A DNA stretch of 64,000 nt, taken from assembly GCF_003721565.1 (NCBI RefSeq), contig NZ_RJJE01000017.1, positions 62,001 to 126,000 of the forward strand. The letters run 5' to 3'. Under the pieces are notes generated by a model. The model was not told the DNA's origin. It did not search any database and saw only the letters and a list, made by a program, of their open reading frames with translations. Positions 7,910 to 32,187 of this stretch are shown here, piece after piece. The stretch is from Rufibacter immobilis (GTDB taxonomy: Bacteria > Bacteroidota > Bacteroidia > Cytophagales > Hymenobacteraceae). Both the position numbers and the translations under genes were made by a program. Within the stretch, counting starts at the first letter, position 1. Each line of letters begins with the position of its first letter.

Positions 7910-9262
7910 ATGCAGAAAATAGCCATACTAGGAGCAGGGGAGAGCGGCGTGGGAGCAGCCTTGTTGGCGCAGGCCAAGGGCTATGACGTGTTCGTCTCAG
8001 ACAGAGGTTCCATTGCGGAAAAATACCGGCAGCAGCTTTCTCAGGCGCAGATTCCCTTTGAGGAGGGAACGCACTCGCTGGGGCAGATTTTCGCGGCCGC
8101 TGAAATTGTCAAAAGCCCCGGTATTCCAGAAACCGCCCCGGTCATTGCCGGAGCGCTGGAGAGAAACATCCCCGTGATTTCAGAGATTGAGTTCGCGGGC
8201 AGGTACGCCCAGGGCCGGTTTATCTGCATTACCGGTACCAACGGCAAAACCACCACCACCCTGCTGACTTACCATTTCCTGAAAAGCGCTGGTTTAAAAG
8301 TAGCGCTGGCCGGCAACGTGGGTGAGAGCCTGGCGGGAAAAGTGCTGGAAGGCGGCTATGATTACTATGTGGTGGAACTGAGCAGCTTCCAGTTAGACAA
8401 TATGTATGCGTTCAAAGCGCACATTGGCATTCTGCTCAACATCACCCCAGACCATCTGGACCGCTATGGTTACCACATGGATAATTACGCAGCCGCCAAA
8501 TTCCGCATTGCGCAGAACATGACGGCTGCTGATTTTTTCCTGTACAACCAGGATGATGCCCAGATCCAGAAGTACCGCGCTGCGCACCAGGTGCCGGGCA
8601 CGCAGGTAGCCTTCGGGTTGAAAGAAGCCGAAGGATTAGCCTTAAGATTGGAAGGAAATGCGATTAGCGCCTCTTTTTCCCAAATTGAGGCAAAAGTAGA
8701 TGTTGCCAAATCACCATTGATTGGGCAGCATAACCAATACAATACCATGGCCGCCGTGGGAGCTGCTTTGCTGGTTGGCATCGCGCCCGCGCAGATTGAA
8801 GCCGCCCTGGGTACGTTCCGGAACGCTGATCATCGGCTCCAGCCGGTGGGGGAGATAGAAGGCGTACGCTTCATCAATGACTCCAAGGCCACCAACGTGG
8901 AAGCGGTTTGGTATGCCCTGGACGGTATTCAGCAGCCCATTGTGTGGATAGTGGGCGGTACAGACAAAGGCAATGATTATTCCACGCTGTCGCCGTTGGT
9001 GCGGCAGAAAGTAAAAGCCATTGTGTGCCTGGGGGTGGACAACAGCAAGATTAGAGCCGCTTTTTCCCAAATCTGCCCAAAACTAGCCGAGACGCAGGAC
9101 GTGAACGAGGCCGTAGACTTGGCTAAAAACTTCGCCCAGGCGGGAGATGTGGTGGTGCTTTCACCGGCCTGCGCCAGCTTTGACTTGTTTAAGAATTATG
9201 AACACCGGGGCCGGGCATTCGCCGAGGCAGTAGCCGCCCTCCAACGTACTGTAGCGTCATGA
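7910..9262 (+). CDS. murD: UDP-N-acetylmuramoyl-L-alanine--D-glutamate ligase
   Basis: A 450-residue Mur ligase adding D-glutamate to UDP-MurNAc-L-Ala with ATP. The N-terminal Rossmann-like segment AILGAGESGVGAALLA binds the UDP moiety, the ATP loop ITGTNGKTTTT is near residues 105-115, NITPDHLDRYG near 178-188, IGQHNQYN near 271-278 and the C-terminal VWIVGGTDKGND near 346-357. Two stretches, residues 251-263 (AISASFSQIEAKV) and 380-392 (KIRAAFSQICPKL), share an AFSQI-like core and are encoded by DNA matching the dispersed palindrome family. Both lie in poorly conserved segments. The stop overlaps ftsW by 4 bases. Confidence 0.96.
   Translation: MQKIAILGAGESGVGAALLAQAKGYDVFVSDRGSIAEKYRQQLSQAQIPFEEGTHSLGQIFAAAEIVKSPGIPETAPVIAGALERNIPVISEIEFAGRYAQGRFICITGTNGKTTTTLLTYHFLKSAGLKVALAGNVGESLAGKVLEGGYDYYVVELSSFQLDNMYAFKAHIGILLNITPDHLDRYGYHMDNYAAAKFRIAQNMTAADFFLYNQDDAQIQKYRAAHQVPGTQVAFGLKEAEGLALRLEGNAISASFSQIEAKVDVAKSPLIGQHNQYNTMAAVGAALLVGIAPAQIEAALGTFRNADHRLQPVGEIEGVRFINDSKATNVEAVWYALDGIQQPIVWIVGGTDKGNDYSTLSPLVRQKVKAIVCLGVDNSKIRAAFSQICPKLAETQDVNEAVDLAKNFAQAGDVVVLSPACASFDLFKNYEHRGRAFAEAVAALQRTVAS
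8660..8696 (+). repeat. Coding copy 1 of the dispersed repeat, in murD
   Basis: 37 bases starting GCGATTAGCGCCTCTTTTTC. These match 19 of the first 20 bases of the intergenic copy at 16551 and, by hand alignment, 29 of 37 bases of the copy at 29786. It is read in frame as A-I-S-A-S-F-S-Q-I-E-A-K, just before the conserved IGQHNQYN segment of MurD. Confidence 0.75.
9047..9083 (+). repeat. Coding copy 2 of the dispersed repeat, in murD
   Basis: 37 bases beginning AAGATTAGAGCCGCTTTTTC, matching the intergenic copy at 27243 at 29 of 37 positions by hand alignment. It is read as K-I-R-A-A-F-S-Q-I-C-P-K, in the same reading frame of the repeat as copy 1, within a variable part of the MurD C-terminal domain. 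Confidence 0.75.
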
Positions 9263-10428
9263 ACCCTATCAAAAACTGGCTTCGCGAAAACCTGAAAGGC
9301 GATCCCATTCTGTGGGGGATTGTCTTGGCGTTTGCGCTCATCAGTATTGCCGTGGTGTACTCGGCCACGGGCACGCTCGCGTACAAGAAAATGGGCGGGA
9401 ATACAGAATATTACCTGTTCAAGCACTCCAGCCTTATCTTCATAGGGTTGGCCTTTGTTTGGCTGGCGCACAAGATCAATTACCGCTATTACGCCAAACT
9501 GAGTCTGGTAGCCCTCATTTTCTCGGTGCCCCTGCTCATTTATACCTACCTCAAGGGCTCTAACATCAATGAAGCTTCGCGCTGGCTAACCATTCCCATC
9601 ATCAACCAGACGTTCCAGCCTTCTGATTTGGCCAAACTGGCTTTGATCTCTTATCTGGCCAGCATCCTGAGCAAGCGCCAGATGAACATTGAATCCAAAC
9701 AGACCTTGATTCCGCTGTTTCTATGGAGCGGTCTTATCTGCGGGCTCATTGCCATGAGTAATATCTCCACGGGTTTGCTCCTGTTCCTGACCTGTCTGCT
9801 GCTGATGTTCATTGGCCGGATTCCCATGAAATCTATCATGGTCATGATTCTGGTGGGGGCTTTGTTCGGTTCTATCGCCTTGGCATTGGGGCAACGGATG
9901 CAGACCGCCATCAGCCGGATTGAGAATTTCATGGACCCCAATGATACGGTCTTCCAGCTGGAGCAGTCCTACATTGCCATTGCTACGGGTGGGGTGTTGG
10001 GCAAGGGACCGGGTAATTCAGACCAGCGCAACGTGTTGCCGCACCCTTACTCAGACTTTATCTACGCCATCATCATTGAAGAGTACGGCATGTTGGGCGG
10101 AGCCGTGGTGTTGTTCCTGTACCTGGCCTTTCTGTACCGGGGGATGATTGCGGTGGCCAATAGTTTGGGAGCCTTTGGAGGGCTGCTGTCGGCGGGCATC
10201 AGCTTCAGCCTGGTCATTCAGGCTATGGTGAACATGGGCGTGGCCGTTGGCCTAGGCCCCATCACCGGTTTGCCGCTGCCCTTGCTCAGTATGGGGGGGA
10301 CTTCCTTGATCTTCACCGGGATTTCCATTGGAATTATCCTGAGTGTGAGCCGCAGTGAGCATGAAGCCAAACTGGCCTCAGCGCCTGCCGTGAATAAACC
10401 TGTTAATGTTCTGACGAATGCCGGATAA
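9259..10428 (+). CDS. ftsW: Septal peptidoglycan glycosyltransferase FtsW
   Basis: A 389-residue SEDS-family polytopic membrane protein, the lipid II polymerase that partners FtsI at the septum. Family segments include FQPSDLAKLALISYLA (about 117-132), ENFMDPNDTVFQLEQSYIAI (about 224-243), GGVLGKGPGNSDQRNVLPHPYSDFIYAI (about 245-272), GMLGGAVVL and the C-terminal GLPLPLLSMGGTS (about 338-350). The loop aspartate in YSDFIYAIIIEEYG corresponds to the conserved region needed for SEDS activity. The gene overlaps murD by 4 bases and murG by 11 bases. Confidence 0.95.
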   Translation: MNPIKNWLRENLKGDPILWGIVLAFALISIAVVYSATGTLAYKKMGGNTEYYLFKHSSLIFIGLAFVWLAHKINYRYYAKLSLVALIFSVPLLIYTYLKGSNINEASRWLTIPIINQTFQPSDLAKLALISYLASILSKRQMNIESKQTLIPLFLWSGLICGLIAMSNISTGLLLFLTCLLLMFIGRIPMKSIMVMILVGALFGSIALALGQRMQTAISRIENFMDPNDTVFQLEQSYIAIATGGVLGKGPGNSDQRNVLPHPYSDFIYAIIIEEYGMLGGAVVLFLYLAFLYRGMIAVANSLGAFGGLLSAGISFSLVIQAMVNMGVAVGLGPITGLPLPLLSMGGTSLIFTGISIGIILSVSRSEHEAKLASAPAVNKPVNVLTNAG

Positions 10429-13686: not shown

Positions 13687-15021
13687 ATGACGCAGAACGA
13701 CAAAATAGTTGTAGGCTTAGACATTGGAACAACCAAAATTTGCGCGCTGGTAGGTAGGAAGAACGAGTACGGTAAACTAGAGATCCTTGGCTTGGGCAAA
13801 GCAGTATCTGAAGGGGTAGTGCGGGGCATGGTCAGCAATATAGATAAAACTGTTGAGGCTATCCGGAAGGCGATCAGGCAAGCCGAGGAGCAGTCTGGCA
13901 TTGATATCAAAGTGGTGAACGTGGGCATTGCCGGGCAGCATATCAAGAGCCTGCAGCACAACGGCAGCATTACGCGCACGTCATTGGACAGTGAGATCAC
14001 CGTGGAAGACGTGAACCGCCTTACCAATGACATGTACCGTCTGGTTACCCCGCCGGGCAGCGAGATCATCCATGTAATGCCACAAGATTATAAAGTGGAT
14101 TATGAGGATGGGATCATGGACCCCGTGGGTATGTCTGGCGTGCGTTTAGAGGGTAACTTCCATATCATTACGGCGCAGTCTAACGCGGTAAACAACATCA
14201 CCAAATGCATTACCCGCGCCGGTCTTGAGATTGATCAGCTTATTCTGGAGCCTCTGGCGTCTTGCATGTCTGTGCTGAGTGAAGAGGAGCGGGAAGCAGG
14301 CGTAGCGCTCATTGACATTGGAGGCGGTACCACAGATTTGGCCATCTTCAAAGACAATATCATTCGTCATACCGCAGTTTTGCCTTTTGGGGGCAATATC
14401 ATTACCTCAGATATCAAGCAAGGCTGTATGGTGATGCAAAACCAGGCAGAGCAGCTGAAGGTGCGGTTTGGGAAGGCGATTGCCGATGAAGCCTCTGAAA
14501 ATGAAGTAGTTTCCATCCCTGGATTGCGTGATCGGACCCCCAAAGAAATTTCCTTGAAAAATCTTGCTTTTATCATAGAAGCTAGAATGGAGGAAATTGT
14601 TGAACTCGTTTACTCAGAAATTGTTAGGAGCGGGTATGCCAATCAGTTAGCGGCGGGCGTTGTGATTACCGGAGGCGGTGCGCAACTGCAGAATTTGGTG
14701 CAATTGGTAGAGTATTTGACTGGCCTTGATGCCCGTATCGGATATCCGAATGAGCATTTGGGTAAGAGCAAGATAGACTCTGTGAAGAGCCCCATGTATG
14801 CGACCACCGTTGGCTTGGTTTTAGCAGGCTACCAGGCGCTGGATGAGCGGATTAACCGCTATACCCAGATTGCCGCCAATAGCAACGTAGAGAACCGGGT
14901 GGTAAATGAAGTCAAACCAGTTCAGAAAACCAGTGGTGGCAGTGACTTCTTCAAGAGGATCTTTGAGCGCACCAAAGGCATGCTGATCGATGATTTTGAC
15001 GACAAGCAACAGAACTATTAA
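13687..15021 (+). CDS. ftsA: Cell division protein FtsA
   Basis: A 444-residue actin-fold ATPase that tethers FtsZ filaments to the membrane. The phosphate-1 motif VVGLDIGTTKICALVG is at residues 8-23, the SHS2 (1C) domain follows, phosphate-2 VALIDIGGGTTDLAIF near 206-221 and the adenosine motif VVITGGGAQLQNL near 323-335. The C-terminal segment SDFFKRIFERTKGMLIDDFD (residues about 420-440) looks like the amphipathic membrane-targeting helix. It lies 8 bases after ftsQ and 23 before ftsZ, the standard arrangement. Confidence 0.97.
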   Translation: MTQNDKIVVGLDIGTTKICALVGRKNEYGKLEILGLGKAVSEGVVRGMVSNIDKTVEAIRKAIRQAEEQSGIDIKVVNVGIAGQHIKSLQHNGSITRTSLDSEITVEDVNRLTNDMYRLVTPPGSEIIHVMPQDYKVDYEDGIMDPVGMSGVRLEGNFHIITAQSNAVNNITKCITRAGLEIDQLILEPLASCMSVLSEEEREAGVALIDIGGGTTDLAIFKDNIIRHTAVLPFGGNIITSDIKQGCMVMQNQAEQLKVRFGKAIADEASENEVVSIPGLRDRTPKEISLKNLAFIIEARMEEIVELVYSEIVRSGYANQLAAGVVITGGGAQLQNLVQLVEYLTGLDARIGYPNEHLGKSKIDSVKSPMYATTVGLVLAGYQALDERINRYTQIAANSNVENRVVNEVKPVQKTSGGSDFFKRIFERTKGMLIDDFDDKQQNY

Positions 15022-15044
15022 CGCGTAATTTCAGGAGAGATAAC

Positions 15045-16550
15045 ATGAGTGTTTCATCGTACAAGTTTGAAGTGCCATCACACTCCAAATCCATCATCAA
15101 GGTAATTGGTGTTGGCGGAGGGGGAAGCAATGCCGTGAACCACATGTTCAACCAAGGCATTAAGGACGTGGAGTTTGTGGTGTGCAATACCGATGAACAA
15201 GCCTTAAAAAGCAGCAGCGTACCTAATAAACTTCAGATTGGAACCACCCTTACCGAAGGTTTGGGGGCAGGTGCCAACCCGGAGCGTGGTAAGCAGGCCG
15301 CCTTAGAAAGCAAAGAGGAAATACGGGAACTGCTGGGAGCGCATACCAAAATGGTCTTCATCACGGCTGGAATGGGTGGTGGTACCGGTACTGGTGCCGC
15401 TCCGGTTATTGCCAAAGTGGCCAAAGAACTAGACATTCTTACCGTAGGCATTGTAACTGCTCCGTTTGCTTTTGAAGGAAAAAAGAAGCGCCTAGCCGCT
15501 GACAATGGTATCAAAGAACTCAGCGAGAACTGTGATACCGTTCTGGTTATCTTGAATGACAAATTGCGCGAAATGTTCGGGAACCTACCCATAAGGTCTG
15601 CGTTCGCGAAAGCTGATAATGTCTTAACCACCGCTGCCAAAAGTATTGCCGAGATCATTACCGTAACCTCTGAGGTGAACGTTGACTTTGAAGACGTGAA
15701 AACGGTGATGAAAGACTCTGGCGCTGCCGTAATGGGCTCTGCCATCACAGAAGGCGAGAACCGTGCGCTGCGTGCCGCCGAGGAATCTCTTTCTTCTCCG
15801 TTGCTGAACAACACTGACATTCACGGAGCGCAGAAGATTCTCCTTTCCATTATGTCTGGTGATCAGGCTGAACTGGAAATGGATGAGCTTACGGAGATCA
15901 CAGACTACATCCAGGAGAAAGCCGGCGATGATTCTGAGGTGATCTTTGGCCATGGCATTGATTCCAGCTTAGGAGCCAGCATTAGAGTTACGGTGATTGC
16001 GACAGGTTTTGCCCGTGAAATGGTTAGCCTTCCGCAGCCAAAAAAGACCGTTGAGGCCGGGGGACCACCCATCGGAGCAACTGCGCCTCAGGCTGTAACT
16101 GAAATAGTTACAGAGCCAATCGCTCCGGTTGTGTCTACTACCTATACTGTGGCTCCGCCCGCAACCGCCAACCAGTTGGTAGTGAACGAGCCCGTGCGGC
16201 AACCTGCTCCGGTGGTAGACAACAACAAGATCATTTTTGACCTAGACTCCAGCAACGAGCTATTCACCCCAGCTTTTGAAGAAGAGCCAGAGGTGCCCGC
16301 TATCCAGAACGTGGTGGACCCTATGCAGTCAAAAATTGAGGAGCGCCGGGCCCGTCTGCGCAAATTGAGCACCGATGCTTATTCAGATGCCTCTATCAAA
16401 GAGAAGCTGGAGGTGCCTGCCTATCTGCGCAGAAATATTCAGTTGGAGAATGTGGTGCCGTCTGCCGAGCAGAAGATTTCCCGCTTCAACCTGAACGATG
16501 ACAACGAGCTACTTGGAGACAACCGTTTCCTGCACGATAATGTAGACTAG
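15045..16550 (+). CDS. ftsZ: Cell division protein FtsZ
   Basis: A 501-residue tubulin-like GTPase that builds the Z-ring. The N-terminal GTP-binding glycines GVGGGGSNAVNHM are near residues 22-34, the tubulin signature GMGGGTGTGAAPVIA near 108-122, and NVDFEDVKTVMKDSGAAVMG near 207-226. A long proline- and acid-rich linker (about 330-440) leads to the C-terminal peptide ending FLHDNVD, the form seen in Bacteroidota FtsZ that binds FtsA. It is the last gene of the dcw block and is followed by a repeat copy and a strong terminator. Confidence 0.98.
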   Translation: MSVSSYKFEVPSHSKSIIKVIGVGGGGSNAVNHMFNQGIKDVEFVVCNTDEQALKSSSVPNKLQIGTTLTEGLGAGANPERGKQAALESKEEIRELLGAHTKMVFITAGMGGGTGTGAAPVIAKVAKELDILTVGIVTAPFAFEGKKKRLAADNGIKELSENCDTVLVILNDKLREMFGNLPIRSAFAKADNVLTTAAKSIAEIITVTSEVNVDFEDVKTVMKDSGAAVMGSAITEGENRALRAAEESLSSPLLNNTDIHGAQKILLSIMSGDQAELEMDELTEITDYIQEKAGDDSEVIFGHGIDSSLGASIRVTVIATGFAREMVSLPQPKKTVEAGGPPIGATAPQAVTEIVTEPIAPVVSTTYTVAPPATANQLVVNEPVRQPAPVVDNNKIIFDLDSSNELFTPAFEEEPEVPAIQNVVDPMQSKIEERRARLRKLSTDAYSDASIKEKLEVPAYLRRNIQLENVVPSAEQKISRFNLNDDNELLGDNRFLHDNVD

Positions 16551-16590
16551 GCGTTTAGCGCCTCTTTTTCAAAAATAAGCCCCGAAACAG
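16551..16590 (+). repeat. Asymmetric copy of the dispersed repeat after ftsZ
   Basis: Starts GCGTTTAGCGCCTCTTTTTC directly after the ftsZ stop codon and ends with AAGCCCCGAAAC. Its right part forms the left arm of the ftsZ terminator, so the repeat and the terminator are physically fused. Confidence 0.8.
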
Positions 16591-16616: not shown

Positions 16617-16636
16617 CTATGCTTTCAAGGAACCCA

Positions 16637-16672
16637 GTTTGGTCCTGTTTTTAGAAAAACGGCCGCTAAACG
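16637..16672 (-). repeat. Asymmetric copy of the dispersed repeat
   Basis: On the minus strand it begins CGTTTAGCGGCCGTTTTTC and ends GGACCAAAC. It lies between the ftsZ terminator and the end of the FMN reductase gene. It is the closest intergenic relative I found of the coding copy in the tlpA-like gene (26 of 35 bases by hand alignment). Confidence 0.75.
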
Positions 16673-17312: not shown

Positions 17313-17350
17313 GCGTTTAGCGGCTCTTTTTCTGAAATCCTGCCTAAAAC
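17313..17350 (+). repeat. Asymmetric copy of the dispersed repeat beside the sdhB terminator
   Basis: Begins GCGTTTAGCGGCTCTTTTTC and ends CTGCCTAAAAC, abutting the sdhB terminator. The copy inside folK matches it at about 31 of 37 positions by hand alignment. Confidence 0.8.
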
Positions 17351-17387
17351 AAAAAGCCGAAGCCTTGGGTGAGGCTTCGGCTTTTTT
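17351..17387 (-). terminator. Terminator of the sdhCAB operon
   Basis: AAAAAGCCGAAGCC pairs with GGCTTCGGCTTTTTT around a short TTGGGTGA loop, 18 bases past the sdhB stop on the minus strand. A/T runs on both sides would allow action in both directions. Confidence 0.9.
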
Positions 17388-21000: not shown

Positions 21001-21070
21001 TTGAACTTTCTATTTTGAATAAATCTAAATTGAAAGCCTGCTGTGGGTTATCGCTTTGAGTTATTTTCTT

Positions 21071-21107
21071 GTTTTGGCCCTCTTTTTGAAAAAATAGCCC
21101 CTAAACA
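21071..21107. repeat. Degenerate copy of the dispersed repeat
   Basis: GTTTTGGCCCTCTTTTTG on the left and ATAGCCCCTAAAC on the right. The right arm is well conserved and the left arm is degenerate. It lies in the sdhC upstream region. Confidence 0.7.
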
Positions 21108-24113: not shown

Positions 24114-24153
24114 CCGTTTAGGGCCTGTTTTTAGAAAAAGAGCCCCTAAACAG
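24114..24153. repeat. GTTTAGGGGC palindrome in the fabD leader
   Basis: Arms CCGTTTAGGGCCTG and GAGCCCCTAAACAG around TTTTTAGAAAAA. It ends 15 bases before the fabD ATG, so in RNA the hairpin would stand directly upstream of the ribosome-binding region. Confidence 0.85.
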
Positions 24154-24168
24154 AAACCCACGAAACGC

Positions 24169-25044
24169 ATGAAAGCATATATTTTCCCCGGACAGGGTTC
24201 TCAGTTTGTAGGCATGGGCAAAGACCTGTATGAGCAGCACCAGGTAGCCAAAGATCTGTTTGAGCAAGCCAATGAGATTCTTGGTTTCCGCATCACTGAC
24301 ATCATGTTCAACGGAACAGAAGAAGAGCTGAAGCAGACCAAAGTAACCCAACCCGCCATCTTCCTGCATTCTGTAATCCAGGCGGCGGTGGCCCAGGACT
24401 TTGCCCCAGAAATGGTAGCCGGCCACTCCTTGGGTGAGTTTTCGGCCTTAGTGGCCAATAAAGTGCTTTCCTTTGAAGATGCCCTGCGTCTGGTGTCTAA
24501 GCGCGCGTTGGCCATGCAGGCGGCTTGTGAAGAGCAGCCCTCTACTATGGCGGCTATCTTAGGCCTGGAAGATGAGAAAGTGGAGCAAATCTGCGCCGGT
24601 ATAGACGACGTGGTGGTGGCCGCCAATTACAACTGCCCGGGCCAGTTGGTTATTTCTGGCTCAGTACCTGGGGTAGAGGCTGCCTGTGAGCAAATGAAAG
24701 CGGCCGGGGCCAAACGGGCCTTATTGTTACCCGTAGGTGGCGCTTTCCATTCGCCGCTCATGAAATCTGCGGAGGCGGAGTTGGAGGCAGCTATCAGACA
24801 AACAGAGTTTAAACAAGGCATCTGCCCTATCTACCAAAACGTAGATGCCCAGGCGCACACAGAGCCTAGTGAGATTCAGCAGAATTTAATCAAACAACTT
24901 ACCGCTCCCGTACGTTGGACCCAGTCTGTGCAACAAATGATCGCAGATGGCGCTACACTGTTTGTAGAATGCGGCCCGGGCAAAGTATTGCAGGGGCTGG
25001 TGAAGAAGATAGACAAGTCAGCTGAAGTGGCGCAGGTAAGCTAA
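24169..25044 (+). CDS. fabD: Malonyl-CoA:ACP S-malonyltransferase
   Basis: A 291-residue transferase that loads malonyl groups onto acyl carrier protein for fatty acid synthesis. The frame is open to 24046, but MKAYIFPGQGSQFVGMG at 24169 is the canonical FabD N-terminus. The nucleophile elbow GHSLGEFSALV places Ser87, the histidine lies in GGAFHSPLM near residue 200, and CGPGKVLQGL is near the C-terminus. The length is normal. It stands alone here, not in a fab cluster, and a palindrome sits in its leader. Confidence 0.96.
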   Translation: MKAYIFPGQGSQFVGMGKDLYEQHQVAKDLFEQANEILGFRITDIMFNGTEEELKQTKVTQPAIFLHSVIQAAVAQDFAPEMVAGHSLGEFSALVANKVLSFEDALRLVSKRALAMQAACEEQPSTMAAILGLEDEKVEQICAGIDDVVVAANYNCPGQLVISGSVPGVEAACEQMKAAGAKRALLLPVGGAFHSPLMKSAEAELEAAIRQTEFKQGICPIYQNVDAQAHTEPSEIQQNLIKQLTAPVRWTQSVQQMIADGATLFVECGPGKVLQGLVKKIDKSAEVAQVS

Positions 25045-25077
25045 AAGACAACAATTTAGGAATTTAATTCTTTGAAG

Positions 25078-26985
25078 ATGGGGCACATGCAGCAGTTGGT
25101 GAGGCAGAAGATGCCAAAGCAGCTTGTCTTTGGAATAGACATTTGCCTGTGTGCCCTCTCTTTTTTGGTGGCGTATCTGCTCCGGTTCAACTTTGACCTG
25201 AGGAAATACACGGAGCTCTCCGTGGCCCAGATGCTCCCTATTGTGCTAGGCGTGCGGGCAGTGGCCTTTTATTACACCAGAACTTACGCAGGAATTCTTC
25301 GCTATACCAGCTTGGATGACCTGCGTAAGCTTTTTATAGCGCTCTCAAGTAGCTCCTTTCTTTTGGTGGCCGCCCAATTGGTAAACAATAAGATTCTGGG
25401 CAACCAGAACTTCATTCCCATCTCGGTATTGCTCATTGATTACCTCATCAGCATGCTGGCCCTGTCTCTCATGCGTGTTTGGGCCAAGATTGTACACTAT
25501 GAATGGAGCCATACCAGCACCCAGAAGGTGAATGTAGCCATCTTCGGGGCCGGCGAGGTGGGGCATATTACCCTCAGGACCCTGCAGCAGGACATGGGCA
25601 CCTATTACCGCTTTGTCTCCTTCCTGGACGATGATGCCCAAAAGGAGAATCTACTCATCAACGGCGTGCCTATAAGGAGGCCGGTGGAGGATTTGGTGGA
25701 GCAGCTTACTTCCTTGCAGATAGATTTGCTCATAGTGGCGGTGCAACAGCTTCCTATTGCCAGAAAACGGCAGTTGGTGGAAGCCTGTCTCAATGCTGGG
25801 GTACAGGTCTTGGTGGTGCCGCCGGTGTACAAATGGATCAACGGGGAACTAAGTTTTAAGCAGATCAGGGAAGTGCGCATTGAAGATGTGCTGGATCGGC
25901 CGGCGGCCGAAATAGACTCACCCCTGCTGCACAAGGAACTGCAAAACCGCGTCGTTCTGGTGACTGGGGCGGCCGGTTCCATTGGCAGTGAGTTGGTGCG
26001 GCAACTGATCAAATTCAAACCTAAGCAGCTGATTCTGCTGGACCAAGCCGAGTCTTCACTCTACGACCTGGAACTGGAACTGACGGAGCTGTACGTGAAG
26101 CTTCACTTTGAGGTAGTGCTGGGCGATATCTGCAACAAACCCAGAATGGAGGCTGTGTACCAGACGTTTCGGCCTGAGGTGGTATTCCATTGCGCCGCTT
26201 ACAAGCACGTGCCTGTGATGGAGGAAAACCCCACGGAGTCATTGAGTACCAATATTCTGGGCACCAAGGTGCTGGCAGATCTGGCCGTGAAGTACCAGAC
26301 CCAGAAGTTTGTGTTGCTGTCTACAGACAAGGCCGTGAACCCTACCAGCGTGATGGGGGCATCCAAGCGCCTGTGCGAAATGTACGTGCAGGCCATGCAC
26401 CACTACCTCCGCGACACCGGCAGCAAACGCACCCGCTTCATCACCACCCGGTTTGGGAACGTGTTGGGCAGCACCGGTTCTGTGATTCCGCGGTTCAGGA
26501 AACAGATAGAGGAGGGAGGGCCGCTTACGGTAACCCATCCAGACATTTCGCGGTTCTTTATGTCCATCAGGGAGGCCTGCCAATTGGTGCTGGAAGCAGC
26601 GGCCATGGGCAACGGCGGCGAGATCTACATCTTTGACATGGGTGATTCCATCAAGATTGTGGATCTGGCTAAAAAGATGATTAAACTCTCGGGTTTAACC
26701 TTGGGCAAAGACATCCAGCTGGTATATACCGGCTTGCGGCCCGGCGAGAAGCTGGAAGAGGAGCTGTTCCACGAAAATGAGTTTGTGCAGTCCACAGACC
26801 ATCCTAAGATAAGGTTAGCCAACCACCCCATCCCCAACAGTGAGAAAGTGATTCAGGAGATTCAGGTACTGATTGATTTGTTCTCCTCACAGAACAACGT
26901 GGCGGTGATCAAGAAGATGAAGCAGCTGGTGCCGGAGTACGTGAGCCAAAACTCGGTGTATCAGAAGTTTGATGTGCGGAAGTGA
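25078..26985 (+). CDS. CapD/FlaA1-like nucleoside-diphosphate sugar epimerase/dehydratase
   Basis: From the ATG at 25078 the protein has about 635 residues. The N-terminal 140 residues form four membrane helices (for example FGIDICLCALSFLVAYLLRF and ISVLLIDYLISMLALSLMRVW). A CoA-binding-like Rossmann domain (VAIFGAGEVGHITLR, about 152-166) follows. The catalytic short-chain dehydrogenase domain has VLVTGAAGSIGSELVRQ (about 294-310) and then FHCAAYKHVPVMEENP and STDKAVNPTSVMGASKR in place of the usual YxxxK. This is the membrane-bound WbpM/CapD class of UDP-GlcNAc 4,6-dehydratases that start surface-polysaccharide sugar synthesis. The exact sugar is not determined. There is no glycosyltransferase cluster beside it. 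Confidence 0.92.
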   Translation: MGHMQQLVRQKMPKQLVFGIDICLCALSFLVAYLLRFNFDLRKYTELSVAQMLPIVLGVRAVAFYYTRTYAGILRYTSLDDLRKLFIALSSSSFLLVAAQLVNNKILGNQNFIPISVLLIDYLISMLALSLMRVWAKIVHYEWSHTSTQKVNVAIFGAGEVGHITLRTLQQDMGTYYRFVSFLDDDAQKENLLINGVPIRRPVEDLVEQLTSLQIDLLIVAVQQLPIARKRQLVEACLNAGVQVLVVPPVYKWINGELSFKQIREVRIEDVLDRPAAEIDSPLLHKELQNRVVLVTGAAGSIGSELVRQLIKFKPKQLILLDQAESSLYDLELELTELYVKLHFEVVLGDICNKPRMEAVYQTFRPEVVFHCAAYKHVPVMEENPTESLSTNILGTKVLADLAVKYQTQKFVLLSTDKAVNPTSVMGASKRLCEMYVQAMHHYLRDTGSKRTRFITTRFGNVLGSTGSVIPRFRKQIEEGGPLTVTHPDISRFFMSIREACQLVLEAAAMGNGGEIYIFDMGDSIKIVDLAKKMIKLSGLTLGKDIQLVYTGLRPGEKLEEELFHENEFVQSTDHPKIRLANHPIPNSEKVIQEIQVLIDLFSSQNNVAVIKKMKQLVPEYVSQNSVYQKFDVRK

Positions 26986-26990
26986 TATTG

Positions 26991-27014
26991 GCCGTTAGCT
27001 GAACGGCTTTTCTA
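26991..27014 (+). terminator. Terminator after the epimerase gene
   Basis: GCCGTT pairs with AACGGC across an AGCTG loop and is followed by TTTT, six bases after the stop. The stem is short but well placed. Confidence 0.6.
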
Positions 27015-27242
27015 TGGCTTTAAGTGCTATGTTGTTTCATCTTTGGCGGTAAGCGCTCACGGCCGCGGGGCCCAGTCTTCCCCTCTCGCACTGCCCTTGC
27101 GGCCATGTGGATGCAGTTGGCGTTTAGTTTCATTGTTACTTGGCCACAAGCGAGGCGCTCTAGGGAAAGACTGGAAATGGTGCTGGTAAGTAAAGGCTTT
27201 TCTAGCTAGAGACAGATCAGCTCTTTTTTTGCGGAAACAATT

Positions 27243-27279
27243 GCGTTTAGAGCCTCTTTTTCCTAAATCTGCTTCAAAC
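27243..27279 (+). repeat. Asymmetric copy of the dispersed repeat
   Basis: Begins GCGTTTAGAGCCTCTTTTTC and ends TGCTTCAAAC. It shares 29 of 37 bases with the second coding copy in murD. Confidence 0.75.
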
Positions 27280-27346
27280 TACCGTTACACATTCAAGCCG
27301 CTAAATCGCTCATAGCTATTGCTGAACGTCTGATAAGGTAACAGCT

Positions 27347-27838
27347 TTATTCTGCGGTGCGGAAGAGGCTTACTTCCAGGTCATCTGGGCATTCTGCCAA
27401 TAGTTGGGTCACCGTTTTCTGGAGAACCGGATGCACAAAATCAGGGGCTACCTCAGCCAAGGGAACTAAGGTGAACCGGCGAAGGTGCAGTTGCGGGTGG
27501 GGGAGGTGCAGCGTCTGGGTCTGGAGGATTTCCTGCCCGTAGAAAAGCAGGTCTATGTCAATGACCCGAGCCCCCCAGCGCTCTTTCCTGATGCGGCCTA
27601 ATTCCTGTTCTACCCGTTGCGTGGTTTCCAGAATCTGCTGCGGGGCTAAGTCAGTCTCAAACAACAGCACCTGGTTCAGGAAAGCGGGTTGGTCTTCCAC
27701 GCCCCAGGCAGCGGTTTCATAGAAGCTGGAGTATTGGCAAGATTTCCCAAAAACGGCCGCTAAACGCGCGGCGGCCTCTTCCAGATAAAGTACCCGGTCG
27801 CCTAGGTTGCCGCCCAGGAGCAGAAACAAAGAAGTCAT
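27347..27838 (-). CDS. folK: 2-amino-4-hydroxy-6-hydroxymethyldihydropteridine diphosphokinase
   Basis: A 163-residue HPPK that transfers pyrophosphate from ATP to 6-hydroxymethyl-dihydropterin in folate synthesis. LLLGGNLGDR at the N-terminus, SSFYETAAWG near residues 38-47, AFLNQVL near 53-59, and RWGARVIDIDLLFYG with LHLPHPQLHLRRFTLVPLAEVAPD make the identification secure. Residues 24-36 (RLAAVFGKSCQY), just before the conserved S-x-x-Y-E-T, are encoded by DNA matching the dispersed repeat. The gene's start codon overlaps the hydrolase stop by one base, so the two are probably cotranscribed. Confidence 0.95.
   Translation of the reverse strand: MTSLFLLLGGNLGDRVLYLEEAAARLAAVFGKSCQYSSFYETAAWGVEDQPAFLNQVLLFETDLAPQQILETTQRVEQELGRIRKERWGARVIDIDLLFYGQEILQTQTLHLPHPQLHLRRFTLVPLAEVAPDFVHPVLQKTVTQLLAECPDDLEVSLFRTAE
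27731..27767 (-). repeat. Coding copy of the dispersed repeat in folK
   Basis: On the minus strand it reads GCGTTTAGCGGCCGTTTTTG, then GGAAATCTTGCCAATAC. By hand alignment about 31 of 37 bases match the intergenic copy at 17313. It is read in a different frame from the murD copies (CGT TTA GCG GCC, giving R-L-A-A-V-F-G-K), one of the two forward frames of the repeat that lack a stop. Confidence 0.75.
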
Positions 27839-28695
27839 TACAGGCGCGCTAAGGTGTCTCTGAAGAATTGAATGGTTTTGTTGGCCGCCGCCTGGGCCAG
27901 TTGGGGCAATTCCTGTGCCTCATACGGGTGCCGCCCACCAAAGGAATGGTCGCCGCCGGGCAGCAGGAACAGCTCCGCGAACGGGTTTAGGGCGTGCAGG
28001 TCGTGGGCCATGCGTACCGGCAGGGTTTCGTCCTGCTCCCCGTGCAGAATGAGCAGCGGAATCTGGAGTTTCTCCACGGCCTTGGGTATGTCCAGGCGCT
28101 GCCGGTTGGCGTGGTAGTTCTCCACCAGTTGGTAATACAGCGGCATCTGCTGGCCGGTGCGCCCGTTCAGAATGTACTGCACTCCGTCCTGCTTCCACTT
28201 CTCCATCACTTCTTGGGACCACCGCTGGTCAATATCACTGATCGCCGACCAGGTGGCCACACCGGTCACATGCGCGTTCTCCGCAGCTTTGAGCAGCACC
28301 AGGCCACCGCCGCGGCTGTGCCCGATGAGGAAGAGATAATCTGCGTCCATTTCCTGGGCGGGTATTTCTGAAGGATTATTTTTCAGGTGTTCCAGCAGGG
28401 TTTCCACATCATCTAATTCAATGCAGAAATTGTTGTTCCCGAAGGCCTCCATATTGGTCAAATCAGACCCGTCTGGTTCTACGCCGTTGTGCGAGAGGTT
28501 GAGTTTCACGAACACAAAACCGTGCCTGGCGAAATAGTCGGCCAGAAGGTTAAAGTGCCCCCAGTCCTTGAATCCTTTGAAACCGTGCACAAAGACCACC
28601 ACCGGTTTGGCCTGTCCGTCCTGGAGCCAGCGGGCATCTACGGCGAAGCTGCGGCCGTGCGGGGAGGGGAGAAGAAAATCTGCGCGTTGAATCAT
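27838..28695 (-). CDS. Alpha/beta hydrolase family protein
   Basis: A 285-residue cytosolic alpha/beta hydrolase. VVVFVHGFKGFKDWG (about 32-46) supplies the oxyanion region, the nucleophile elbow GHSRGG places Ser127, and HGEQDETLPV (about 212-221) and GGDHSFGG (about 247-254) supply the acid and histidine. The Ser motif G-H-S-R-G-G and overall length resemble dienelactone hydrolase or prolyl-oligopeptidase-type esterases. No substrate can be assigned. It lies directly upstream of folK on the same strand and shares one base with it. Confidence 0.85.
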   Translation of the reverse strand: MIQRADFLLPSPHGRSFAVDARWLQDGQAKPVVVFVHGFKGFKDWGHFNLLADYFARHGFVFVKLNLSHNGVEPDGSDLTNMEAFGNNNFCIELDDVETLLEHLKNNPSEIPAQEMDADYLFLIGHSRGGGLVLLKAAENAHVTGVATWSAISDIDQRWSQEVMEKWKQDGVQYILNGRTGQQMPLYYQLVENYHANRQRLDIPKAVEKLQIPLLILHGEQDETLPVRMAHDLHALNPFAELFLLPGGDHSFGGRHPYEAQELPQLAQAAANKTIQFFRDTLARL

Positions 28696-28800
28696 GGGCG
28701 TGAATATCTGAAAAAGGTGCGGAAGTAACGCCTGAAAAACGGCAAATGCAAGCGCGGCGTTTGCTTCTGAGGGCGCAGCCTCGTAATATTGCGCCCGAAG

Positions 28801-29778
28801 ATGAGCAGCCCCTTAAACCAGATACAGGCCCCGATTGCAGTGGAGATGCAGGAGTTCGAGAAGAAGTTCCGCCAGTCCATGCAGTCAAACGTGCTGTTGC
28901 TGGACAAGATCATGGGCTACATTGTGAAACGAAAGGGCAAACAGATGCGCCCCATGTTCGTTTTCTTCATGGCCAAGCTCATCCAGGAGCAGATCCCAGA
29001 TGCCACTTACCGGGGCGCCGCCCTCATTGAGCTGCTGCACACCGCCACCCTGGTGCATGACGATGTGGTGGACGACTCCAACTACCGCCGGGGTTTCTTC
29101 TCCGTAAACGCCCTCTGGAAAAACAAGATTGCCGTACTGGTAGGCGATTACCTACTTTCCAAAGGCCTGCTGCTTTCGCTTAACAACGATGATTTCGGGC
29201 TGCTCAAGATTGTGAGCAACGCCGTGCGCGAAATGAGCGAGGGCGAACTGCTCCAGATGGAGAAAGCCCGCCGCCTGGACATCACCGAGGAAGTCTACTT
29301 TGACATCATCCGGCAGAAAACCGCTTCCCTCATTGCCTCCTGCTGCGCCGTGGGCGTGGCCTCCGTAGGCGCCGATGCGGAGACGGTAGAACGTGCCCGC
29401 CTCTTTGGCGAGAAAGTGGGGCTGGCTTTCCAGATCAAAGACGATTTATTTGACTACGGCACCGCCGAGATTGGCAAACCCGTGGGCATTGACATCAAAG
29501 AGAAGAAGATGACCCTGCCCCTCATCTACGCCCTGCACCAAGCCGATTGGCTCACCAAACGCCGCGTCATTTACAACGTCAAGAACAACAACGGCAAAGC
29601 CGATAAAATCAACGCTGTCATTGACTTCGTGAAGAAGTCCGGGGGCTTGGAGTATTCCATTCAGCGCATGAACGCCCTGCACGCCGAGGCCCTGCAACTG
29701 CTCCACACCTTCCCCGCCTCGCCCTCCCGCGACTCCCTGGAGCAACTCATCCGGTACACCATAGAACGCGAGAAATAA
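28801..29778 (+). CDS. Polyprenyl diphosphate synthase (octaprenyl type)
   Basis: A 325-residue trans-isoprenyl diphosphate synthase, starting at the ATG at 28801. The first aspartate-rich motif DDVVD is at residues 87-91 and the second in FQIKDDLFDYG near 211-221. GKQMRPMFV (about 46-54) is the conserved substrate-binding Gly-Lys-x-x-Arg-Pro segment. The enzyme condenses isopentenyl diphosphate to make the side chain of menaquinone; chain length is not read directly but IspB-like proteins have this length. The gene is divergent from the hydrolase-folK pair. Confidence 0.93.
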   Translation: MSSPLNQIQAPIAVEMQEFEKKFRQSMQSNVLLLDKIMGYIVKRKGKQMRPMFVFFMAKLIQEQIPDATYRGAALIELLHTATLVHDDVVDDSNYRRGFFSVNALWKNKIAVLVGDYLLSKGLLLSLNNDDFGLLKIVSNAVREMSEGELLQMEKARRLDITEEVYFDIIRQKTASLIASCCAVGVASVGADAETVERARLFGEKVGLAFQIKDDLFDYGTAEIGKPVGIDIKEKKMTLPLIYALHQADWLTKRRVIYNVKNNNGKADKINAVIDFVKKSGGLEYSIQRMNALHAEALQLLHTFPASPSRDSLEQLIRYTIEREK

Positions 29779-29785
29779 GCCACTC

Positions 29786-29822
29786 CCGTTTAGCGGCTCT
29801 TTTTCCTAAATTGGGTTAAAAC
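29786..29822 (+). repeat. Asymmetric copy of the dispersed repeat
   Basis: Begins CCGTTTAGCGGCTCTTTTTC eight bases after the polyprenyl synthase stop codon and ends GGGTTAAAAC. It matches the first murD coding copy at 29 of 37 positions by hand alignment. Confidence 0.8.
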
Positions 29823-29895
29823 TGTGTAGTGGGAGTTTCAGGAGCAGAAGATTAACTTTAAGGTTCTGGACGAGGGAGAAAGAAGAAGCCTTTGC

Positions 29896-30549
29896 ATGAA
29901 TATGATGAACATTGAGAAAAAGATCTGTATTTACGGAGCAGGCGGCTTTGGCCGGGAAACGCTCTGTGCCCTTATTGATAGCATTGCTCCGCACGGGCTC
30001 AAGATTGAGGATGTGGCCTGCTTTATGGTAGATGACCAGTTCTATCGTGAGCCCAGAATCATGGGTGTAGAGGTGATCAAGCGCTCATCCTTTGATCCGG
30101 CTATCTATGATGTGGTGGTGGCCGTGGGAGATCCTGCTGCCCGCAGAAAACTGGTGGAAGAATTGCCTGCTTCCACTACCTTTGGCCGGGTGGTGCACCC
30201 CAGTGCTGTGCTCTCCCAGTGGGTAGATATTGGCGAAGGCTGCATCATCACAGCGGGTACTGTCCTTACCTGTAACATCAAAATAGGCAAACACGCCCAT
30301 CTCAACCTGCACACCACCATTGGCCATGATTTTGTGGCAGGAGACTTCTTCACTACAGCGCCGGCGGCTAACGTGAGCGGCAACTGCACCTTCGGGGATG
30401 GGGTTTACCTGGGAACTAATGTGTCTGTGCGCGAAAAAGTGACCCTTGCGTCTGGCGTAATCATTGGCATGGGGGGCGTGGTCTTGAAAGACATTCAGGA
30501 GGCGGGGGTGTACATTGGAAACCCGGTGAAGAAACTGGAGAAAAAATAA
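29896..30549 (+). CDS. NeuD/PglB-like sugar O-acyltransferase
   Basis: A 217-residue protein. An N-terminal nucleotide-binding-like segment (KICIYGAGGFGRETLCAL) is followed by a left-handed beta helix built of hexapeptide repeats (GCIITAGTVLTCNIKIGKHAHLNLHTTIGHD to GVIIGMGGVVLKDI). This is the sialic-acid O-acetyltransferase NeuD family, whose members acetylate sugars or sugar amines with acetyl-CoA. The H-x-x-x-G-H region (NLHTTIGHDF) contains the likely catalytic histidine. The substrate is unknown. The next gene is a small membrane protein, and no glycan cluster is visible. Confidence 0.88.
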   Translation: MNMMNIEKKICIYGAGGFGRETLCALIDSIAPHGLKIEDVACFMVDDQFYREPRIMGVEVIKRSSFDPAIYDVVVAVGDPAARRKLVEELPASTTFGRVVHPSAVLSQWVDIGEGCIITAGTVLTCNIKIGKHAHLNLHTTIGHDFVAGDFFTTAPAANVSGNCTFGDGVYLGTNVSVREKVTLASGVIIGMGGVVLKDIQEAGVYIGNPVKKLEKK

Positions 30550-30638
30550 AAACCACCTCTGGCGAAAGGCTGGTTTGCACTGGCTGCTTGCCGAAGATGT
30601 CTTAATCTTTTACCTTTAATAAAACTTAATCAGAATTG

Positions 30639-30812
30639 ATGGCTGCTTTCGCGAAAAGAAAATATACGGTTTACCAGGTGGTCCTGGCGTTGCTGTTGCT
30701 GGCCTTGGTGTTCGGTGGGGAAGTGGAGAAAAACATTGTGGCCGCCTGTTCGCTGGGGTTATTGAATGTCTTGAATCTGTTCAGGGTAGTGAAAGAATGG
30801 AAGACCGCTTAG
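30639..30812 (+). CDS. Small membrane protein of unknown function
   Basis: A 57-residue open frame from ATG 30639 to TAG 30812. It has a basic N-terminus (MAAFAKRKYTVYQ), one strongly hydrophobic segment (VVLALLLLALVFGGEV), a second weaker one (NIVAACSLGLLNVLNLF) and a charged end (RVVKEWKTA). The two-helix hairpin layout, the AT-rich leader before the start and the position in a gap between genes support a real gene. I do not recognise the family. Confidence 0.6.
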   Translation: MAAFAKRKYTVYQVVLALLLLALVFGGEVEKNIVAACSLGLLNVLNLFRVVKEWKTA

Positions 30813-30835
30813 CACGTTAAGGAAATAACTATAGT

Positions 30836-30874
30836 GCGTTTAGGGGCTCTTTTTCCTAAAATAGCCCCTAAACT
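30836..30874. repeat. GTTTAGGGGC palindrome beside a terminator
   Basis: GCGTTTAGGGGCTC and AAATAGCCCCTAAAC around TTTTTCCTAAA. It runs straight into the terminator hairpin at 30872. Confidence 0.85.
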
Positions 30875-30915
30875 CAAACGGCGCAGTTCTTCTAAGAACC
30901 GCGCCGTTTGAGTTT
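30872..30915. terminator. Bidirectional hairpin between the small membrane gene and the tlpA-like gene
   Basis: ACTCAAACGGCGC pairs with GCGCCGTTTGAGT, with a second short stem (GTTCTT/AAGAAC) inside. It lies between convergent genes and ends about 20 bases past the tlpA-like stop. The flanking A/T is modest. Confidence 0.7.
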
Positions 30916-30933
30916 AGGGATCACCGTGATAGA

Positions 30934-32187
30934 TTACTTCTCGGCCAGCAGTTGGTCAATGGTCTTGTTGAAGTCCTGCACGAATTCCTCGTAATACTTA
31001 CCAGTGCCGGGGCCCGAGAAGCCGGTATGGATCTTACGCACTTTGCCCTGCTTGTCAATGAAGATGGTGGTAGGGAAGGACAGCACGTGGTTGAGCGCCG
31101 GCAGTGATTTGGCCACCAGTTCCTTGTCTTTGGTGCCGCCTATCAATAAGGGGTACGTGACGTTGAGCCGGTCGCGCATTTTCTCCACACGTACTTTGGC
31201 TTTGTCAAACTCTGGGCTCACCTCATACCCAAGACCCACTACCTCTACGCCGCGGTCTTTGTTTTTGGCGTACCAGGGCGCCAGGAATTTTGTCTCGTCC
31301 ATGCAGTTGGGGCACCAGGACCCAAAAATCTGCGCCACCACCACTTTGCCCTTGAACTGCGGGTCTGTGAGCGCTACCTTCTTGCCGCTCAGGTCTGGGA
31401 AAGAAAAGTCCAGGCGGTCAAAACCGGGTTTCAGGTAGGTGAGGGTATCGGCGGAAGCCAGTTGGAAGGCATCGTTGCGTTTGGCAGTCCAGGTCTCGTG
31501 GCTATTCTGTCCGGCGTAGAAATCACCCGCTAGGGTTCCGTCTGGGTTGCCCTGGGCCGTGAAAAGGTAAGCGTGGGCGCCGTCAAAGGCAGAAAGCTTC
31601 AGTTGGTCTCCGGCAACTTCGCCCTGCAGGTAGCGATAGTCGCCGGTGGTGGTCAGGAAGGTGCCGGTGAGGGCGTTGCCTTTCTGCACGAACTCGCCAA
31701 TGGCGGGGTAAGTTTTGCCTTCGTCATCGGTGAACTGTACTTCCCATTTGCCGCTCACCTCCAGCGTTGGTTTGGCCGGATTTTGGGAAAAACGGCTGCT
31801 ATTCCCATGCTCAGCGGTGAACGGCAGACTGTACGGGGTGGCTTGGTCTTTCCGCTCCCAGCGGCCGGTAAGTTTGTTTCCCTCTACCTTGGCAATGAGC
31901 GCGGCGTCAAAAATGTGCATCTGCAAACGCACACTGTCTTGAGAATGAGAAATTTCATTAATCAAAATTCGTTCTTCTCCGTTTATTAGATGAGCCACCT
32001 GTTTTCCGGCCTCTTCAGACACGGTGAAATTGAAGGGCATCTCCTGGCCGCTTACCTCAATGGTACCACGCCAGGTGCCGGCGCTTAGCTGGTCTGGGGA
32101 GGAGGAAGAAGAAGTGCAGGCCTGGGTGCCCACGGCAGCCGAAAGGAGGGCGTAGAAAGCGTATTTGCGGAGCGAATTCTTGTTCAT
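30934..32187 (-). CDS. TlpA-family thioredoxin-like lipoprotein
   Basis: A 417-residue exported protein. A signal peptide ends in VGTQAC, with Cys24 as the likely lipid anchor. Residues 35-245 form two similar beta-rich modules (WRGTIEVSGQEMPFNF and GKWEVQFTDDEGKTYP). The C-terminal thioredoxin domain carries SWCPNC with Cys292 and Cys295, followed by VEVVGLGYEV and FPTTIFIDKQGKVRKIHTGF. TlpA/ResA proteins reduce disulfides in the periplasm, for instance during cytochrome maturation. Between the first two modules, residues 129-141 (NSSRFSQNPAKP) are encoded by a repeat-like stretch. Confidence 0.9.
   Translation of the reverse strand: MNKNSLRKYAFYALLSAAVGTQACTSSSSSPDQLSAGTWRGTIEVSGQEMPFNFTVSEEAGKQVAHLINGEERILINEISHSQDSVRLQMHIFDAALIAKVEGNKLTGRWERKDQATPYSLPFTAEHGNSSRFSQNPAKPTLEVSGKWEVQFTDDEGKTYPAIGEFVQKGNALTGTFLTTTGDYRYLQGEVAGDQLKLSAFDGAHAYLFTAQGNPDGTLAGDFYAGQNSHETWTAKRNDAFQLASADTLTYLKPGFDRLDFSFPDLSGKKVALTDPQFKGKVVVAQIFGSWCPNCMDETKFLAPWYAKNKDRGVEVVGLGYEVSPEFDKAKVRVEKMRDRLNVTYPLLIGGTKDKELVAKSLPALNHVLSFPTTIFIDKQGKVRKIHTGFSGPGTGKYYEEFVQDFNKTIDQLLAEK
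31769..31804 (-). repeat. Coding copy of the dispersed repeat in the tlpA-like gene
   Basis: On the minus strand it reads GAATAGCAGCCGTTTTTCCC and then ends CGGCCAAAC. It matches the intergenic copy at 16637-16672 at 26 of 35 positions by hand alignment. It is read as S-S-R-F-S-Q-N-P-A-K, the same frame as the two murD copies, at a linker between beta modules. Confidence 0.65.

What the first reader, a model, noticed from the sequence alone, without database searches (positions are those of the whole stretch)
8660..31804. Dispersed palindromic repeat that is also read as protein in murD (twice), folK and a tlpA-like gene
Four coding stretches (8660-8696, 9047-9083, 27731-27767, 31769-31804) match intergenic members of the family over about 35-37 bases: 29/37 to the copy at 29786, 29/37 to 27243, about 31/37 to 17313 and 26/35 to 16637, by hand alignment. 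Each is in frame without a stop. Three use the same frame and give x-F-S-Q-x-x-x-K, and folK uses the other stop-free forward frame. All lie in variable segments. Rickettsia palindromic elements are the known precedent for protein-coding palindromes. I know of no report in Bacteroidota.
Basis: partly seen in the sequence, partly recalled or inferred. Interest (0 to 1): 0.92.

Follow-up and report, generated by a model that had tools for sequence, protein, structure and literature searches.

The report
Genus-wide DNA mark evolving in place
A 38-base mirror-symmetric DNA motif occurs hundreds to thousands of times in all 16 genomes examined of one bacterial genus, each species spelling it its own way, and in several core genes it arose by letter changes rather than by insertion, which suggests a DNA-reading system not yet identified.

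Summary
The four coding matches are real, and a fifth, stronger one lies in murE. They are not insertions: orthologs in the congeners aligned have the same length there, as do outgroup MurE and MurD site 2. The larger finding is a genus-wide 38-bp dyad, GTTT-N9-TTT-N4-AAA-N9-AAAC: 1,309 places in this genome and 186–1,561 in each of 15 congeners, against 0–3 in 134 other family genomes. Sites recur at orthologous places (35 of 42 comparable gaps), but each species has its own arm dialect. Coding sites follow the dialect (murE, murD twice, folK, tilS; mraY does not pass), and synonymous codons are biased to the motif. Pontibacter and Hymenobacter lack it in murE, murD and mraY. It is scarce on one congener's second replicon. 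Best reading: a DNA-level recognition mark written in place by substitution, perhaps driven as DNA uptake sequences are. Against uptake: no type IV pilus ATPase over cut-off in the genus. The protein that reads it is unknown.

The parts
   Evidence: score 38.8; 15 of 15 species aligned (G006 not in the data), same length, absent in 6 outgroups; synonymous bias p<0.01 in 14 of 15, dialect statistic 2.77 above the null maximum 2.32
8661..8698 (+). coding site 1 in murD (7910-9262), read ISASFSQIEAK
   Evidence: score 15.4; positive in 15 of 15 species aligned (this one included), no indel; synonymous bias p<0.01 in 15 of 15; dialect test 10 of 1500. Its second half-site is weak here
9048..9085 (+). 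coding site 2 in murD, read KIRAAFSQICPK
   Evidence: score 16.8; 14 of 15 species (not G013); dialect test 0 of 1500
27729..27766 (-). coding site in folK (27347-27838, minus strand), read RLAAVFGKSC
   Evidence: score 17.5; 12 of 12 species with ungapped windows; dialect test 4 of 1500. Its second half-site is weak here
31768..31805 (-). weak coding site in a TlpA-like thioredoxin-fold gene (30934-32187, minus strand), read SSRFSQNPAK
   Evidence: score 8.9; synonymous bias p<0.01 in 11 of 15 species; AhpC-TSA/Redoxin match
7582..7619 (+). mraY place where 11 of 15 species carry a coding site but this species does not
   Evidence: own score -18.5; 17.7 to 32.7 in 11 species; peptide [14 protein letters not shown] in all 15
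7852..7889 (.). intergenic copy 2 bp after the mraY stop, before murD
   Evidence: score 61.7; copy near the same stop in 4 of 5 congeners compared
17314..17351 (.). intergenic copy at a similar offset in 5 of 5 congeners compared
   Evidence: offsets 94/93/90/96/88/84 bp; aligned in 8 species beside an ordinary hairpin
21070..21107 (.). intergenic copy between divergent genes at a similar offset
   Evidence: offsets 153/154/154/153/151; absent in G012
34686..34723 (.). intergenic copy between convergent genes
   Evidence: offsets 69/65/68/68/82/58; G012 has a second copy
45538..45575 (.). near-consensus copy
   Evidence: score 62.3
16552..16589 (.). copy 1 bp after a stop codon
   Evidence: score 45.1; 5 of 5 congeners compared have one in this gap
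16635..16672 (.). copy
   Evidence: score 41.0
24115..24152 (.). copy; inside ORF 24046-25044 only if its first ATG is used; the acyl transferase domain starts at residue 45, after the copy
   Evidence: score 57.5; intergenic in 3 of 5 congeners
27244..27281 (.). copy
   Evidence: score 30.9
29787..29824 (.). copy
   Evidence: score 29.3
30837..30874 (.). copy
   Evidence: score 49.1
38184..38221 (.). copy
   Evidence: score 46.9
40770..40807 (.). copy
   Evidence: score 47.2
43817..43854 (.). copy
   Evidence: score 58.8
46679..46716 (.). copy
   Evidence: score 53.4
50184..50221 (.). copy
   Evidence: score 44.5
58028..58065 (.). copy; overlaps a 129-aa ORF (57688-58077, minus strand) without Pfam match
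   Evidence: score 43.9
58787..58824 (.). copy
   Evidence: score 62.3

Best explanation
The repeat is a DNA-level recognition mark, not an inserted element. It is a 38-bp dyad whose two half-sites are held at fixed spacing, and a protein shared by the genus probably reads it on double-stranded DNA. Marks arise and are kept in place by base substitution, in spacers and, where the protein tolerates it, in coding sequence. Shown: the motif, its genus limits in the genomes sampled, similar positions across species, dialects, coding members without indels, and DNA-level constraint in codons. Inferred: the reader protein and the driver. The driver I think most likely (about 0.35 on its own) is preferential uptake and recombination of marked kin DNA, as for DNA uptake sequences, through machinery that is not a type IV pilus.
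For: Skeleton counts 1309 in this genome and 186-1561 in 15 of 15 congeners, against 0-3 in 134 other family genomes. In a class-wide sample of 345, in which no other congener was drawn, only this genome exceeds 3. Profile density is 388-567 sites per Mb in all 16 species with control hits 0-1. Of 42 comparable gaps with a copy here, 35 have one in the congener (one gene-call artefact left out of 43). Of 34,593 coding windows in 31 gene alignments, four places stand apart after merging neighbours (mean 26.8, 24.0, 21.2, 19.2; next 3.2). Dialect statistic against 1500 random coding windows: folK 4, murD1 10, murD2 0, mraY 208 at or above the observed value. tilS (2.73) and murE (2.77, profiles retrained without it) exceed the null maximum 2.32. 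Synonymous resampling gives p<0.01 in 12/12, 15/15, 14/15, 11/15, 11/15, 16/16 and 14/15 species for folK, murD1, murD2, mraY, tlpA, tilS site 1 and murE. Among the aligned species only this one has AG at the dialect-diagnostic place in murD1, murD2, tlpA and tilS; in murD2 this gives Arg where the others have Leu, Ile, Phe or Val, in tilS Arg where they have Leu or Gln. Six Pontibacter and Hymenobacter genomes lack the motif in mraY, murD and murE. 6 of 311 strong half-sites lack a partner. On contig 2 of G012 there are 5 sites in 100 kb against 132 in 280 kb of contig 1, and 4 of 31 gaps against 85 of 142.
Against: No reader protein was identified. 0 of 16 genus genomes have a type II/IV secretion ATPase (PF00437) over the cut-off, only weak matches in 8, so the pilus of known uptake-sequence systems seems missing. 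ComEC is in all 16 but in 18 of 19 relatives too. Known uptake sequences are not obligate dyads (recalled; PMC3630211 does mention dyad pairs in some species). Two of the six half-sites without a good partner are the murD site 1 and folK copies themselves. Some pairing signal exists: arm matches 5.24 of 9 against 5.11 expected, combined z 3.6, and G-T 453 against A-C 339 mismatches in transcript sense, which leaves room for a hairpin role. mraY did not pass the dialect test. 7 of 42 orthologous gaps lack the copy, and one coding site (dimethylformamidase-like gene) is in only 5 of 15 species, so sites do come and go. The largest site-free stretch is a core oxidase operon rather than foreign DNA, so absence from islands is not shown; the base-composition correlation is confounded.
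Confidence: 0.55

Rival explanations
1. Binding site of a chromosome-organising or segregation protein (works like Noc, SlmA or MatP sites; those names are recalled), maintained by selection on the chromosome, with no DNA uptake involved.
For: Near-obligate dyad with almost invariant T and A runs 11 bp apart; concentrated on the main replicon of G012.
Against: About 390-570 sites per Mb is far denser than recalled systems of this kind; weak selection on each site hardly explains residue differences in MurD and TilS that follow a dialect.
Confidence: 0.27
2. REP-like element: a palindrome at gene ends that acts as a single-strand or RNA hairpin and was once spread by a RAYT transposase, homogenised later.
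For: Distribution like that described for REPs (PMC3733652): 3.39, 2.06 and 1.02 sites per kb in convergent, tandem and divergent gaps; in tandem gaps median 56 bp from the stop against 138 bp to the next start; weak pairing covariation and a G-T excess; one RAYT-like gene in this genome.
Against: No GTAG or CGTC tag in the flanks; RAYT-like genes are not genus-specific and G006, with 607 copies, has no match; coding sites show no insertion; pairing covariation is absent in this species by profile-picked sites (z -1.3) though z 1.9 by skeleton-picked ones.
Confidence: 0.13
3. Protein-coding palindromic insertions as in Rickettsia.
For: Palindromes are read in frame in unrelated genes.
Against: No length change at the coding sites examined across congeners, nor in MurE and MurD site 2 against outgroups.
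Confidence: 0.02
4. Chance resemblance of codon strings (S-F-S-Q and the like) to the repeat.
For: The tlpA match is weak and a few shuffles reach 5 to 13.6, mostly at the same places.
Against: 34,593-window survey, synonymous resampling and dialect tests.
Confidence: 0.01

Closest known systems
DNA uptake sequences (DUS) and their dialects, Neisseriaceae (PMC3630211; outline, abstract and passages read)
   Same: Very many copies, species dialects, copies inside genes and in spacers, frequent inverted pairs.
   Different: Here a near-obligate 38-bp dyad, mostly in spacers, in Bacteroidota, with no type IV pilus ATPase over cut-off; uptake is untested.
REP sequences, GTAG- and CGTC-tagged (PMC3733652; passages and section 15 read)
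   Same: Short palindromes, high copy number, next to stop codons, convergent more than divergent gaps, some inside genes.
   Different: No tag, similar orthologous places across species, no insertion in coding members, RAYT match absent in one carrier species.
Rickettsia palindromic elements (as described in PMC3733652; otherwise recalled)
   Same: Palindromes read as protein in unrelated genes.
   Different: Rickettsia elements are inserts; these are substitutions in place.
HIP1 of cyanobacteria (PMC4390886; start of abstract and passages read)
   Same: Highly iterated palindrome of uncertain function spread over a lineage.
   Different: HIP1 is an octamer tied to methyltransferases; here 38 bp, mostly in spacers, methyltransferases untested.

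Membership tests
Rickettsia palindromic element | inserted into reading frames, lengthening the protein | tested here: not met
   no indel at the sites in the congeners aligned and in outgroup MurE and MurD site 2
REP (GTAG/CGTC) | GTAG or CGTC tetranucleotide at one end | tested here: not met
   oriented consensus of own sites shows weak ttg then CGTTTAG, no such tag; congeners' flanks not tested
REP (GTAG/CGTC) | high-copy short palindrome at 3' ends of genes | tested here: met
REP (GTAG/CGTC) | associated RAYT transposase | tested here: inconclusive
   15 of 16 genus genomes have a Y1_Tnp match, G006 none; 26 of 33 other relatives have one too; flanks of the gene not examined
DNA uptake sequence | very many copies with species dialects | tested here: met
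   exact skeleton counts 186-1561; profile densities 388-567 per Mb on 60-464 kb samples, which would extrapolate to roughly 2000 per genome
DNA uptake sequence | copies in coding sequence kept without insertion | tested here: met
DNA uptake sequence | type IV pilus uptake machine | tested here: not met
   PF00437 over cut-off in 0 of 16 genus genomes; other pilus genes not searched
DNA uptake sequence | marked DNA is taken up preferentially | not testable with these tools
   needs a transformation assay
Intrinsic terminator | stem followed by a run of T | tested here: inconclusive
   scan of 15001-35000: 30 terminator-like sites against 23.7 (sd 5.4) in shuffles; one copy (34686) appears with its whole stem, three others in part; an ordinary hairpin lies beside the copy at 17314
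HIP1 | cognate DNA methyltransferase | not tested
   no methyltransferase search was made

The most novel reading that the evidence does not exclude
A genus-wide DNA mark of a new kind: a dyad read by an unknown protein, spread by a molecular drive that rewrites chromosomal sequence in place, strong enough to change residues of core enzymes such as MurD and TilS, and re-specified species by species.
Probability: 0.4. Interest if true: 0.93.

Novelty: new variant of a known kind. Interest (0 to 1): 0.86.

Why it matters
Concerted change of hundreds to thousands of sites that largely keep their places, including sites inside core cell-wall genes, needs a driver. The genus offers 16 species with different dialects, two of them (this one and G012) with sharpened ones, so co-evolution of motif and reader can be tested directly. 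If the driver is DNA uptake, it would be a sequence-specific uptake system in Bacteroidota without a type IV pilus; if not, an unknown chromosome-marking system.

Tried and rejected
Insertion reading: rejected by same-length alignments.

RNA hairpin or terminator as the main role: in this species the profile-picked sites show no arm-pairing excess (position 7 of skeleton-picked sites does), and G-T and A-C mismatches are balanced (95 and 87). The genus-wide count leans to G-T, 453 to 339, with some excess of T over A in the same sites, so a minor RNA role stays open. No Rfam match in the window.

RAYT as driver: not genus-specific. Absence from genomic islands: base-composition correlation, but the largest empty stretch is a cytochrome oxidase operon, so not claimed. 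Viral contigs: the 80 matches listed of at least 120 show one place per contig, taken as chance and not followed. Plasmid records: no match to one copy with its flanks.

Corrections made on the way. The impression that the family was confined to this species (strict own-dialect pattern) was wrong; the dialect-free skeleton corrected it. A notebook entry saying 54 of 55 convergent gaps confuses sites with gaps; the figure is 45 of 55 gaps of at least 45 bp. My simple codon-score gene caller missed murE, so the copy at 5283 was counted as intergenic until, it is one of the 'intergenic' training sites (murE was retested without it), and coding and spacer counts are approximate. The apparent coding copy at 24115 is probably a start-codon artefact. 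In one search, three of five cases of 'empty here, occupied in congener' are that same artefact.

Literature: ten searches showed no report of this motif in their listings; they cover open PubMed Central only.
Full report
Observation. The window is 64 kb of a 4.77 Mb genome (G000). The nearest named MurD relatives found are Pontibacter at 62-65% (records very near this genome may be left out there). The family is therefore taken as Hymenobacteraceae and the genus as likely Rufibacter; both are my inference. A profile of the window's palindromes finds 19 further copies and only the four reported coding places above a score of 5. Genes were identified as MurD, HPPK (folK) and an AhpC-TSA/Redoxin protein. 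Synonymous shuffling gives about 0.12 hits of this strength per round outside one doubtful gene call, against 4 real. One of the 19 copies, at 5283, is inside murE, so five copies are coding.

Not an insertion. Orthologs from congeners show no length change at the sites: 14 congeners for murD, 15 for folK (one fragmentary upstream) and tlpA, 14 for murE. At MurD site 2 the 18 outgroup proteins aligned are equally long; at site 1 Pontibacter is equally long and others differ by a few residues nearby. MurE of six Pontibacter and Hymenobacter is equally long at the site and lacks the motif (-16 to -36). Congener DNA at the murD, folK and tlpA codons also resembles the motif, sometimes more than here.

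The family. With the dialect-free skeleton GTTT-N9-TTT-N4-AAA-N9-AAAC, this genome has 1309 places with no control match. The 15 congeners have 186 to 1561 (controls 0-2), and 134 other family genomes 0 to 3. In a sample of 345 genomes of the class, with no other congener drawn, only this one exceeds 3. Species profiles trained on places outside called genes give 388 to 567 sites per Mb in all 16 species, with 0 or 1 control hits; information content is 23 to 45 bits, highest here and in G012. Each species has its own arm spelling.

Position. In gaps with orthologs in five congeners, 35 of 42 comparisons with a copy here have one in the congener (35 of 43 as printed; one row is the murE gene-call artefact). 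Offsets are similar, for example 94, 93, 90, 96, 88 and 84 bp, and 153, 154, 154, 153 and 151 bp in a divergent gap where G012 has none. An alignment of the first gap in 8 species shows the copy beside an ordinary hairpin. Density is 3.39, 2.06 and 1.02 sites per kb in convergent, tandem and divergent gaps; 45 of 55, 91 of 141 and 20 of 55 gaps of at least 45 bp have one.

Anatomy. Both halves fit one consensus. Only 6 of 311 strong half-sites lack a partner, two of the six being the murD site 1 and folK copies. In this genome halves come in two states, 278 of 398 with at least 7 of 8 diagnostic bases, and diagnostic bases within a half go together. Arm pairing beyond the consensus is weak overall: 687 sites, 5.24 against 5.11 matched pairs, combined z 3.6; for this species z -1.3, or 1.9 with skeleton-picked copies. 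The centre dinucleotide is rarely self-complementary.

Coding members. Over 34,593 ungapped windows of 31 gene alignments (murE not included), folK, murD twice and mraY stand apart (means 26.8, 24.0, 21.2, 19.2; next 3.2), and tlpA ranks seventh at 1.3. Relative to 1500 random coding windows, which share the same relatedness, the dialect statistic is matched or exceeded by 4 (folK), 10 (murD1), 0 (murD2) and 208 (mraY). Synonymous resampling is significant at 0.01 in 12/12, 15/15, 14/15, 11/15 and 11/15 species for folK, murD1, murD2, mraY and tlpA; 500 random windows had mean z 0.01, sd 0.56, maximum 2.85. tilS site 1 is present in 16 of 16 species without indel, significant in 16 of 16, with dialect statistic 2.73 against a null maximum of 2.32; tilS site 2 is positive in 13 of 16 (two tilS matches carry an in-frame TGA). 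murE is significant in 14 of 15 with dialect statistic 2.77, using profiles retrained without it. A dimethylformamidase-like gene has the site in 5 of 15 species at unchanged length, that is, gain or loss in place. The diagnostic AG of this species appears in murD1, murD2, tlpA and tilS only here among aligned species; it gives Arg in murD2 (others Leu, Ile, Phe, Val) and tilS (others Leu, Gln). Three Pontibacter and three Hymenobacter lack the motif in mraY and murD (best scores -3.9 to -35).

Second replicon. On contig 2 of G012, where 10 proteins searched include multicopper oxidases and P-type ATPases, 100 of 155 kb hold 5 weak sites (median 26.5), while 280 kb of contig 1 hold 132 (median 52.3). 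4 of 31 gaps against 85 of 142 carry one. That it is a plasmid is inferred.

Mechanism. A transposed hairpin does not explain coding sites born without insertion. A terminator or gene-end signal does not explain the nearly empty second replicon or sites inside murE, murD and tilS. A mark read on DNA and rewritten in place fits all. Uptake-sequence drive (PMC3630211) is the best-known process of this sort, but the genus has no type IV pilus ATPase over cut-off and ComEC is uninformative. I therefore hold the mark itself as likely and the uptake driver as the leading but unproved option.

Noticed in passing
62119-63921: Several short direct repeats (families D3, D5, D7, spacings such as 153, 297 and 720 bp) inside or next to a minus-strand ORF (61687-63678), suggesting a repeat-domain protein.
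   Followed up: no
7618-7643 and 9303-9328: A 26-bp stretch shared at 88% between mraY and the start of the gene after murD.
   Followed up: no
L209:7355-20000 and L210:1-6229 (G000:C1 27355-46229): Largest site-free stretch (18.9 kb, G+C 0.44) in 400 kb; seven proteins searched there include cytochrome oxidase, NrfD and cytochrome c families.
   Followed up: partly
L410-L414 (G012 contig 2): 155-kb second replicon with repeated copper and heavy-metal genes and few marks; the five found score low under the G012 dialect.
   Followed up: partly
G000:C1:452724-452942: Single RAYT-like (Y1_Tnp) match in this genome; its flanks were not checked for the palindrome.
   Followed up: no
own and G012 sites: The central two bases of the dyad are rarely self-complementary (5% against 35% expected here, 14% against 42% in G012).
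   Followed up: partly
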